A program made the position numbers and the translations under genes. DNA of 64,000 nt from Crambe crambe (Eukaryota; Porifera; Demospongiae; Poecilosclerida; Crambeidae): assembly GCA_963924555.1 (NCBI GenBank), contig OZ004589.1, positions 3,782,001 to 3,846,000 on the forward strand, read 5' to 3'. A model generated the notes under the pieces. It worked only from the letters and a program-made list of their open reading frames with translations, was not told where the DNA came from and did not search any database. Of the stretch, positions 10,746-27,467 are shown one piece after another. The stretch's first letter is position 1. Every line of letters starts with the position of its first letter.

Positions 10746-13700
10746 TCATGGTAGTATAAACATATCCTCACAAGCAATACTTTTTAGTAACTTCTGATAG
10801 TCATCACTTCCTTCCAATTCTTTAGCTGAAACTCTTTTACTTGGATCCTTTTTTAAAAGCTTTTCAATCAGTGAAGCCTATAGAGTAGCAATTTATGTCT
10901 ACAATAGCATAGCAATCTGGAGCTAGTTTACAAGTAAGGCAGCTAGATTATACTACTTCTGTGACCTTGACAGGTGGCATGCAAGTGTATGAGCTTGTGA
11001 ATGCATGGTAGCATGCAGAAATAGTATGGTCCATGAAGAAGCATAAGGAAGTGATCGATGATGGCAGAAAAGCAGTAAGGATCCCAAGGAAGATTACATC
11101 ATTAGACAGTTACACATCAGAGGAGGTACAATAAGTCTATGTCACTCTCTCAAGGAAATACCTGGAAACAAACTATGTTGGGAACCCCCTAGCCTAGTAC
11201 CAGTAGATACTTCAACCATAAAGTATTATCTAGACACAGCTATTTTCATAGGTATTGAAGAAGCTATTTCTTGTTGCTCTCAGGTAGGGAATGACCAACT
11301 CCATTTTCCATCATAGTAATGACATCGTAGTAACATAAGCTTGTCGTACCTCCTCTGTTACCACCCATTATTTATTTCTGGGAAGTTCTCCAAACTACCT
11401 AGGCTACCATAGCAGCACCAAGTGTAATGTTTTTTGAAGTGCAGATACTCTGATCAGGCTTGCCAATAAATTTACCTCCAATTCCATCTTTTGAACTGAT
11501 TTTGGAACTTTTTCTGTCTTTCTCACTTCATCAAAAAGCTGGAATAGAAATATAATCCTCAAGATTGCAAAATGAGAACAAATTGCTACCTTCTGCTTTT
11601 CATGACTGAACTCCATGTAGTGATAATTTAGCTCCAAGAAAATAAGACCCATGGCATACATATCCACTTTAGGTCCATACTTCTTCCCTTCCAACTGTTC
11701 TGGGCTGTTGTAGAGCTTAGTACCCACATCATTGGTTAGTGTACGTGAATCCTCATTCCCTCCTCCCAACACCTGCACATGTGGTCTCTGACCTATATGT
11801 AGTATCAAAGTTAGTAGCTGTATAACAATCAGTACTGTCCTAGGTAGCTGAACAACACAGGAAGTTTACTTGTCTGTGGAGCTGTGTGCTCAATACTTTT
11901 TCATATGCCACAATGATTTAGGGGAGTGGTTGTTCTTTCATAATTTTGTAATATTGTGGTAGAATGGAATCTCACATCTTTGGCCAAATTTTTTTTTCTC
12001 CAAGCTGCTGGACAAGTGGATAATAAAGCCAGCCAGGGATGTCCACCCATGAGTGGCCCTTGTAACACATGCAAAAAAATTTTTTTTTGGAAAACCTGAG
12101 TACATATAACTATAGCCTGAGTACATATAACTATAGCCTGAGTACATATAACTATAGCCTGAGTACATATAACTATAACCTGAGTACATATAACTATAGC
12201 CTGAGTACATATAACTATAGCCTGAGTACATATAACTATAGCCTGAGTACATATAACTATAGCCTGAGTACATATAACTATAGCCTGAGTACATATAACT
12301 ATAACCTGAGTACATGCAGTAAAATTTTCATTGTTACATTATTAATTAGCTACCATGTACAAGATAAGTTGGGATGGCATGGATGCCGAGTAATTTTCTT
12401 TCATTATGCAGGTGTACTTCTCATACTTGAAGATAGAACACCTTCAGTGTGGTAGTACTCAAACATGAGACAAAGGAGTATAATTTCACCATTTTCATCT
12501 GGCCGTTCATCATTATCCACGGCCTTATTTCAAAAAAGAATGCTATAACTTTTATACCACACTACTAAAAAAATGAGGGCTGTAGGAACTGGTACAGCAG
12601 GTACGGCTATAGCCGTACCACTACAAACCTTTTCATCGAGTTTGACTTCAGTTCTAGTAGCCTTTTAGCTAAGAGCTGTAGCTAGCTAGCTTGACATCTA
12701 CAAAATAACGCACACTGCACACACCCTTCATACGTAGACTTACGTAGTGCATGTGTGCCATAAGTATGTGGGCTGTACCAGCTTAAAATTGGTTGCTACT
12801 GTTTATAATCTGATATAATTGAAATAGCACACATAAAGGCAGACATTTTTGCTGTGTACTAGGAATATGCCCTGTCCCTTGATTCTTGTGAACGAAGTGC
12901 ACTCCTGTTTCCAAGAGTGTTGTTACAGCAATTGGTTAAAGAGGAGCTAACCTTCTCTTAAGGCTGGTCTCTCAATGCTCAGAGTATTATGAGTGATCGC
13001 TGAATGTTGAACCCCTCACTTGTCTTGTTATGTCAATTACATTCTATTATTCTAAAACTGTATAGACCATCAGCAGATTCATAATCTCCAAATACTGCAT
13101 AGCTAATAATAATGAGGGAAAAACGAAATGAAAAAAGATGTAGGGATGACCATTACTCAAAAAAGATGAAGGATGGAAATGGGATCAATCTTTGTTCAGT
13201 ATATCCAGCCAACAATCCCTCTGGTAGCTTCAGATTATAGTGCAGTAATGGATGAAGGGATTGTTGGCTGGATATACAGAACAAAGATTGATCTTTTATC
13301 CCTACTTGTTTCCTTACTTTTTTGAGCAGTGGTCATCCCTACATCTTTTTTTCATTTCACAGAAATATTTCCCCTTGCTTCATGTCTTTATGATTTTGCG
13401 GATAAATGCAAGAGTTCATTCTTTTATGTGTATAGCTGAGTAATGGATATGAAATACATGTGTATTATCGAAATGGCTTCCAATAATTAAGATAGTCGAG
13501 TACTATGCTCCATAGTGTCTCCTTTTTCTTCAACTCTTTTGAGGATCGCCGAGTAGAAAAGATCGTAGCTGGTAGAGTTTGGAGTGGATTTATTTGCTGT
13601 AGCTTGAGTGGTTTGAGAGATATGGTTGTCTAAGAAGAATAACAACAATAGAGAAGAAGAATCCAGCAACTTACCTGCTTGCCGTATTTCTGAACGGTAA

Positions 13701-27467: not shown

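What the first reader, a model, noticed from the sequence alone, without database searches (positions are those of the whole stretch)
10746..27467. Single-gene fusion of a HELZ2/UPF1-like RNA helicase and a PKR-type eIF2-alpha kinase
Fifteen exons splice in perfect phase to 1301 codons covering CCCH finger, all SF1 helicase motifs and a complete kinase with GEGAFG, catalytic Lys, [11 protein letters not shown] and SPE. The helicase-to-kinase join is made by a small acidic linker exon (15240-15328), and both flanking introns are phase-matched, so it is not two adjacent genes read together. In vertebrates these functions are separate proteins: PKR senses dsRNA through dsRBDs, and HELZ2 has no kinase. 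Seen: motifs and frames. Known: the families. Inferred: a one-polypeptide RNA sensor that stops translation, possibly antiviral.
Basis: partly seen in the sequence, partly recalled or inferred. Interest (0 to 1): 0.93.

Follow-up and report, generated by a model that had tools for sequence, protein, structure and literature searches.

The report
Helicase-kinase fusion gene in sponges
One gene in this (probably sponge) genome joins an RNA-unwinding enzyme of the HELZ2 type to a protein kinase of the kind that shuts down protein synthesis, and proteins of the same build turn up in another sponge, which suggests an animal-built RNA alarm that was assembled independently of our own antiviral kinase PKR.

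Summary
Window 27440-10746 (minus strand) splices as 15 GT-AG exons, in phase, into 1292 aa: CCCH finger, HELZ2-type helicase, acidic linker, complete eIF2-alpha-type kinase. Phase alone was weak proof, since the linker exon opens with an in-frame ATG. Four relatives support one chain: two Halichondria panicea RefSeq proteins and two single open frames on contigs of unnamed source. The kinase is probably not PKR-type: PERK is its best solved relative; the five fusion kinases group (95/87) beside PERK (95/95); three kinase introns match the genome's own PERK. An AU test does not exclude a PKR grouping (p 0.275). The helicase shares an intron with all 23 C19 helicases examined, most of them in units with RNB nuclease domains. 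Best reading: HELZ2-type helicase exons joined to a PERK-type kinase, giving an RNA-gated eIF2-alpha kinase. RNA sensing, substrate and antiviral use are inferred; no transcript was available. Ten open-access literature searches listed no account of it. Neighbouring copies are broken.

The parts
26703..27440 (-). exon 1: start codon, N-terminal Cys motif, CCCH finger, five copies of a 26-aa repeat
   Evidence: zf-CCCH 16.3 bits, below cut-off; repeat starts at aa 109, 135, 161, 187, 213
18997..19097 (-). exon 2 (pre): helicase lead-in [16 protein letters not shown]..
   Evidence: a similar exon is found upstream of most of the 23 C19 helicases examined
17105..18083 (-). exon 3 (helA): helicase with [18 protein letters not shown]
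   Evidence: AAA_11
16592..17014 (-). exon 4 (helB): helicase
   Evidence: AAA_12
16437..16518 (-). exon 5 (helB2): short helicase exon
15705..16064 (-). exon 6 (helC): helicase with QGKQFR and SRAQ
   Evidence: no AATAAA/ATTAAA in the following 376-nt intron
15240..15328 (-). exon 7: acidic linker exon, with an in-frame ATG as its first whole codon
   Evidence: its splice sites are kept in copies B and B'
14950..15107 (-). exon 8 (k1): kinase glycine loop and catalytic Lys
14737..14895 (-). exon 9 (k2): kinase helix alpha-C
14615..14686 (-). exon 10 (k3): kinase insert
14408..14564 (-). exon 11 (k4): kinase hinge, [16 protein letters not shown]
   Evidence: its 3' intron is shared with the genome's PERK
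14121..14283 (-). exon 12 (k5): HRDLKPAN and DFG
11590..11792 (-). exon 13 (k6): activation loop VGTKLY and SPEQ
   Evidence: its 3' intron is shared with the genome's PERK
11476..11538 (-). exon 14 (k7): alpha-G region, [12 protein letters not shown]
   Evidence: its 3' intron is shared with the genome's PERK
10746..10877 (-). exon 15 (k8): kinase C-terminus and stop
28055..32242 (-). copy B: helB to kinase end, 79.5-96.6% aa identity per matched exon; broken (stop codons in kinase exons)
9559..10080 (-). fragment C: partial helicase exon of a further copy, 77% aa identity

Best explanation
The gene is a single transcription unit made by joining the exons of a HELZ2-type RNA helicase (CCCH finger plus UPF1-like helicase) to a kinase of the PERK branch of the eIF2-alpha kinases, through a small acidic linker exon. 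SHOWN: exon structure, domains, the same one-chain architecture in four other predicted proteins, grouping of the kinase with PERK in the best tree, intron positions shared with PERK and with HELZ2-type helicases of the same genome. INFERRED: that this gene is transcribed as one mRNA; that the helicase end binds a class of RNA (foreign, structured or transposon RNA) in the cytosol; that RNA or ATP binding brings two or more molecules together; that the kinase halves pair, phosphorylate their activation-loop Thr and then Ser51 of eIF2-alpha, shutting off translation. HELZ2 ends in RNA decay; this protein has a kinase and no RNB nuclease, so recognition would lead to translational arrest instead.
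For: 15 phased GT-AG exons. Fusions elsewhere: P0032 (1539 aa) and P0143 (1234 aa) of Halichondria panicea, RefSeq; P0029 (1255 aa = 3765 nt of ORF on a 3,999-nt contig); P0144 (1058 aa on a 7,839-nt contig, one open frame from helicase into kinase, so no intron at the junction). By eye the N-termini of P0029 and P0032 match exon 1. Kinase: PDB PERK > GCN2 > PKR > HRI; tree of 36 kinase domains: fusions one group 95/87, fusions + PERK 95/95, PKR 100/99 and GCN2 100/99 apart; motif [SA]W-x-E..P-x-x-W in 13 of 13 PERK, 3 of 5 fusions, 0 of 8 PKR, 0 of 10 GCN2; introns k4|k5, k6|k7, k7|k8 at the same place and phase as in the genome's own PERK on C15, whose upstream frame has a membrane-spanning stretch by eye. 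Helicase: intron after AGDxxQ shared with 23 of 23 minus-strand C19 helicases examined, of 27 such places; C19 holds 13 helicase-helicase-RNB units; fusion, C19 and Amphimedon helicases group 100/100 against SDE3/MOV10 and SDE3; P0238 carries a similar helicase C-terminus followed by RNB and a sub-threshold OB_HELZ2 match. The activation-loop Gly-Thr, SPEQ and an alpha-G stretch that aligns with PERK, PKR and GCN2 are kept. dN/dS of A against copy B 0.27 in the kinase and 0.43 in helB-helC; against B' 0.28 and 0.37. PMC9839780 (passages) describes human HELZ2 as an interferon-stimulated protein with two helicases and an RNB domain that lowers LINE-1 RNA.
Against: No RNA data: the transcript of this locus is unproven, and the linker ATG leaves a kinase-only start possible. 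AU tests do not reject fusion kinases + PKR (p 0.275 and 0.43). The tree has no HRI, and its rows were picked by hand. The window kinase itself lacks the PERK motif and has an end branch of 1.44. Only 3 of its 7 internal introns are shared with PERK; at least two (k1|k2, k5|k6) are not. One origin of the five fusion helicases is unresolved (44% of bootstrap trees; AU p 0.33). The CCCH match is below its Pfam cut-off. P0029 and P0144 come from unnamed organisms, and the Halichondria proteins are automatic annotation. Nothing shows RNA sensing, eIF2-alpha as substrate, or an antiviral role.
Confidence: 0.62

Rival explanations
1. Two neighbouring genes, helicase and kinase, in a compact genome; the phase match is luck and each is transcribed on its own.
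For: The linker exon starts g|at ATG, so a kinase could start there; the helicase exon read through its donor meets a stop within 30 nt; a phase match at two introns by luck is about 1 in 9 (my estimate).
Against: Four one-chain relatives, two of them single open frames on contigs; junction splice sites kept in both broken copies; no AATAAA/ATTAAA in the 376-nt junction intron, which is weak, as about 0.5 would be expected there at the strand's mean of 1.22 per kb.
Confidence: 0.05
2. The kinase descends from a PKR-like ancestor rather than PERK.
For: AU tests do not reject it (p 0.275, 0.43); 2 of 5 fusion kinases, the window's among them, lack the PERK motif.
Against: PERK is the best PDB match by 44 bits over PKR; best tree and motif favour PERK; introns shared with the genome's own PERK (PKR introns not tested); PKR is reported from vertebrates only (PMC5025754, passages).
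Confidence: 0.12
3. It senses cellular RNA trouble (stalled ribosomes, aberrant mRNA) rather than foreign RNA: a quality-control kinase working like GCN2.
For: UPF1 is the best solved relative of the helicase; UPF1-like helicases and GCN2 work in RNA and ribosome surveillance (general knowledge).
Against: HELZ2-type genes are tandemly amplified in this genome and the C12 gene is duplicated and partly broken, a pattern more usual for defence genes (general knowledge); human HELZ2 is interferon-stimulated and acts on LINE-1 RNA (PMC9839780). None of this is decisive.
Confidence: 0.3
4. The gene is decaying: the array is a graveyard of pseudogenes and copy A is merely the last one still open.
For: Copies B and B' carry stops in kinase exons and B' a damaged helicase exon; fragment C is truncated.
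Against: Copy A is open through 15 exons with the catalytic motifs; dN/dS 0.27-0.43 against B and B', though on few synonymous sites and with patchy identity; the fusion is kept in other genomes.
Confidence: 0.06

Closest known systems
HELZ2 (interferon-stimulated helicase-RNB exoribonuclease)
   Same: Helicase of the same kind; CCCH finger (sub-threshold); intron after AGDxxQ shared with the genome's own HELZ2-type helicases
   Different: One helicase rather than two, and a kinase; no RNB match
PERK / EIF2AK3
   Same: Closest kinase domain; three intron positions shared with the genome's own PERK; PERK motif in 3 of 5 fusions, not in the window's
   Different: No ER-luminal sensor or membrane span in its place; the N-terminal part is an RNA helicase
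PKR / EIF2AK2
   Same: Proposed logic: RNA-binding part fused to an eIF2-alpha kinase
   Different: No dsRBD; kinase in a separate group in the best tree; reported from vertebrates only
Halichondria panicea 'probable helicase with zinc finger domain' isoform X3 (P0032) and LOC135342289 (P0143)
   Same: Same helicase-linker-kinase order; P0032 also has the N-terminal CCCH region
   Different: P0032 is 33% identical to the window protein over the linker-kinase part and has several CCCH-like fingers by eye; the names given by the source do not mention the kinase
Amphimedon queenslandica LOC109580354 (P0001)
   Same: Best match of the helicase-region search, 32%
   Different: N-terminal Death domain, no kinase match

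Membership tests
eIF2-alpha kinase family | Complete active-looking protein kinase (Gly loop, Lys, Glu of alpha-C, HRD, DFG) | tested here: met
eIF2-alpha kinase family | Kinase domain closest to PERK/GCN2/PKR/HRI | tested here: met
   of the 19 best PDB sequences 17 are named as one of these four; the other two (1zxe, 9bf3) bear the generic name protein kinase
eIF2-alpha kinase family | Activation-loop Gly-Thr and alpha-G docking pattern | tested here: met
   alignment of 36 domains; in the window kinase the Arg of the common E-R is Lys
eIF2-alpha kinase family | Phosphorylates eIF2-alpha Ser51 | not testable with these tools
   needs protein
PERK | Kinase domain in the PERK group | tested here: inconclusive
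   best tree 95/95 for fusions+PERK, but a PKR grouping is not rejected
PERK | ER-luminal domain and membrane span | tested here: not met
   the N-terminal part is CCCH + helicase
PKR | dsRNA-binding domains | tested here: not met
   no dsrm match in the protein at E 0.01; of 18 dsrm places in the genome the only one on C12 is at 83987
PKR | Kinase in the PKR group | tested here: inconclusive
   apart in the best tree; AU p 0.275
HELZ2 | UPF1-like helicase of the HELZ2 kind | tested here: met
   by kinship with the genome's helicase-RNB genes; vertebrate HELZ and HELZ2 sequences were not in the trees
HELZ2 | RNB exoribonuclease domain | tested here: not met
   the 23 RNB matches of the genome lie on C19, C3, C6 and C16, none on C12
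HELZ2 | CCCH zinc finger | tested here: inconclusive
   16.3 bits against a cut-off of 20.5
One-chain helicase-kinase fusion | Both halves in one continuous open frame in at least one genome or transcript | tested here: met
   P0144 and P0029
One-chain helicase-kinase fusion | One transcript across the junction in this genome | not testable with these tools
   no RNA reads available

The most novel reading that the evidence does not exclude
A further class of eIF2-alpha kinase: early animals built an RNA-helicase-gated translation switch by exon shuffling between a HELZ2-type antiviral helicase and a PERK-type kinase, arriving independently at the job that PKR does in vertebrates.
Probability: 0.4. 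Interest if true: 0.9.

Novelty: new variant of a known kind. Interest (0 to 1): 0.74.

Why it matters
The known animal eIF2-alpha kinases each couple the same kinase to a different sensor (dsRNA, ER stress, uncharged tRNA or stalled ribosomes, haem; general knowledge). A version with an RNA helicase as sensor, found in several genomes, would add a sensor class, show that RNA-triggered translation arrest arose more than once in animals, and give a direct test of what HELZ2-type helicases recognise, because binding could be read out as kinase activity.

Tried and rejected
Structure prediction of P0144 with a five-row alignment gave mean pLDDT 47.2, so no fold search was run. HRI could not be placed: the search for its N-terminal family found nothing, but its control also rang nowhere, so it says nothing. 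The helicase-region protein search listed 22 hits and none of the fusion relatives; the kinase-region and P0032 searches found them. Only the best 120 of 3376 and of 2454 hits were listed, and P0029 is missing from the list, so further fusions, inside or outside sponges, may have been missed. Kinase-tree rows were 30 proteins picked by hand from those lists plus the window kinase and the genome's PERK; three extra kinase-like pieces of GCN2 proteins were dropped before the tree. The C19 splice checks read most loci on the wrong strand and were redone. The first helicase tree lost three rows to a crop rule (P0032, P0143, one MOV10); one search put P0032 and P0143 back, left out the remaining MOV10 row and one SDE3 row, and used 11 of the 23 C19 rows. 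Rfam at gathering scores: no match in the window. NCBIfam gave only sub-threshold models for P0032 and P0144. Whole-genome kinase searches scored only part of the candidates (125 of 1704, 138 of 509). Ten paper searches listed no paper whose title or shown abstract describes such a fusion; four papers were read by passages only (PMC9839780, PMC6723221, PMC11229196, PMC5025754).

Full report
What was checked. The window is G000:C12:3782001-3846000 of a 143-Mb, 119-contig genome. I rebuilt the gene from the minus strand: 15 exons between 27440 and 10746, all introns GT-AG, all junctions in phase, 1292 aa plus stop. Pfam finds Pkinase, AAA_12 and AAA_11 above cut-off and zf-CCCH below cut-off.

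Is it one gene? The stronger evidence is comparative. A search scored on the linker-kinase part, restricted to proteins of similar total length, showed two other helicase-kinase proteins among the best 120 of 3376 hits: P0032, Halichondria panicea 'probable helicase with zinc finger domain isoform X3', 1539 aa, and P0029, 1255 aa on a 3,999-nt contig. A second search from P0032 added P0143 (Halichondria panicea LOC135342289, 1234 aa) and P0144 (1058 aa on a 7,839-nt contig) among the best 120 of 2454. P0144 begins, by eye, just before the place where the window gene has its pre|helA intron (..CDGEYK.. against ..CDGTYH..) and then runs as one open frame through helicase and kinase, so no splicing is needed at the junction there. 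P0029's ORF fills almost its whole contig, which looks like a transcript; its source label 'lgn' I take to be an assembly of public reads (recalled). P0029 and P0032 also share, by eye, the N-terminal Cys motif and CCCH region of exon 1. In the window, the junction splice sites are kept in both broken copies; the junction intron holds no AATAAA or ATTAAA, which is weak evidence for an intron of 376 nt.

What the kinase is. Of the 19 best PDB matches 17 are named PERK, GCN2, PKR or HRI and two bear a generic kinase name; the best of each is PERK 1.2e-52, GCN2 3.8e-42, PKR 2.9e-39, HRI 5.7e-32. In a tree of 36 kinase domains (13 PERK, 10 GCN2, 8 PKR, 5 fusions; no HRI) the fusions are one group (95/87) inside a fusion+PERK set (95/95), with PKR (100/99) and GCN2 (100/99) apart. 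Holding fusions and PKR together costs 5.88 log units and is not rejected (AU p 0.275); without the window kinase it costs 1.83 and p is 0.43. So the tree favours PERK but does not prove it. Two other lines point the same way: the motif [SA]W-x-E..P-x-x-W occurs in 13 of 13 PERK, 3 of 5 fusions, 0 of 8 PKR and 0 of 10 GCN2 (absent from the window kinase and from P0029), and three of the seven introns inside the window kinase (k4|k5, k6|k7, k7|k8, all phase 0) sit exactly where the genome's own PERK gene on C15 has introns; k1|k2 and k5|k6 do not. I could not test the intron positions of PKR. PMC5025754 (passages) reports PKR from vertebrates only and PERK from invertebrates. The catalytic residues, the activation-loop Gly-Thr and an alpha-G stretch aligning with the known eIF2-alpha kinases are present.

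What the helicase is. UPF1 is the nearest solved structure (8.3e-9). Inside the genome the nearest relatives, apart from the C12 copies, are on C19. Most of these helicases come as pairs followed on the same strand by an RNB domain, about 3 kb apart start to start: seven helicase-helicase-RNB units at 527-613 kb and six at 4.086-4.278 Mb, one RNB being partial (my reading of the coordinates). That is HELZ2-like content, although human HELZ2 is described as two helicases flanking the RNB domain (PMC9839780, passages). All 23 minus-strand C19 helicases examined, of 27 such places listed, have the intron after AGDxxQ at the same place and phase as the window gene; L030, on the plus strand, has it too. 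Fusion, C19 and Amphimedon helicases group 100/100 against SDE3 and MOV10 and against SDE3 alone. Whether the five fusion helicases are one clade is unresolved. P0238, a protein of unnamed source, carries a similar helicase C-terminus (53% over 9% of the query) followed by RNB and a sub-threshold OB_HELZ2 match. The 23 RNB matches of this genome lie on C19, C3, C6 and C16, none on C12, and none of the kinase matches listed lies inside the two C19 arrays, though both searches scored only part of their candidates.

Copies. The C12 locus is duplicated. A' on the plus strand outside the window is 99.9% identical over the 10 kb compared, introns included, mirrored about C12:3776822. Elsewhere the two arms differ: around exon 1 and the first intron 96.6-98.4%, and copies B and B' 95.4%. 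That speaks against a simple assembly fold-back and for a real inverted duplication with part of it kept alike, but I cannot exclude mixed haplotypes. B (window 28055-32242) and B' (in L069) align with A at about 85-91% in their long stretches; both have a stop in kinase exon k6, B another in k4, and B' has a damaged helicase exon. Fragment C (9559-10080) is part of a helicase exon. dN/dS of A against B is 0.27 in the kinase and 0.43 in helB-helC, against B' 0.28 and 0.37, so the lineage has been under constraint, though synonymous sites are few, identity is patchy and gene conversion is likely.

How it may work. Shown: one chain (by gene model and relatives), an RNA helicase of the HELZ2 kind in front of an apparently active kinase of the eIF2-alpha family. 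Inferred: binding of an RNA class by the helicase and CCCH end clusters the chains, the kinase halves pair and autophosphorylate as in PERK and PKR, and eIF2-alpha is phosphorylated. HELZ2 in humans is an interferon-stimulated protein that lowers LINE-1 RNA (PMC9839780, passages), and two HELZ2-type genes have lower expression in the sponge Dysidea avara after exposure to symbiont rather than seawater microbes (PMC11229196, passage); both make a defence role plausible, neither shows it. A ribosome- or RNA-quality-control role fits almost as well.

Novelty. Ten searches of the held open-access library listed no paper that describes this fusion in its title or shown abstract; most subscription journals are not held. 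The architecture does exist in automated Halichondria annotation, under names that do not mention the kinase. I therefore call it a new variant of a known kind.

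Noticed in passing
G000 C19:527696-613316 and 4085874-4277732: Regular tandem units helicase-helicase-RNB, seven and six, about 3 kb start to start: an amplified HELZ2-like family.
   Followed up: partly
G000 C12 about 3738001-3814500, centre 3776822: Large inverted duplication around the window's left edge, 99.9% identical over 10 kb and 95-98% elsewhere; probably real, partly kept alike.
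   Followed up: partly
window 2362-7778 and 35357-40999: Direct duplication, 89-95% identical, containing an astacin protease exon (ORF 2748-3371, Astacin 149.6 bits).
   Followed up: partly
window 26740-27129: 78-bp repeat (26 aa) in coding exon 1, five units here and four in the mirror copy (L069), so its number varies.
   Followed up: partly
window 12095-12315 and 55607-56100: Tandem arrays of about 21 bp (inside the k5-k6 intron) and 26 bp.
   Followed up: no
window 22600-23100, plus strand: ORFs that look by eye like a DDE transposase fragment inside the 7.6-kb first intron; the one piece given to Pfam had no match.
   Followed up: partly
window 60917-62017, plus strand: Sulfotransferase-like ORF (Sulfotransfer_3 40.2 bits).
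   Followed up: no
P0001, Amphimedon queenslandica LOC109580354: HELZ2-type helicase with an N-terminal Death domain; with RNB and kinase partners elsewhere, the helicase looks like a chassis with exchangeable effector domains.
   Followed up: no
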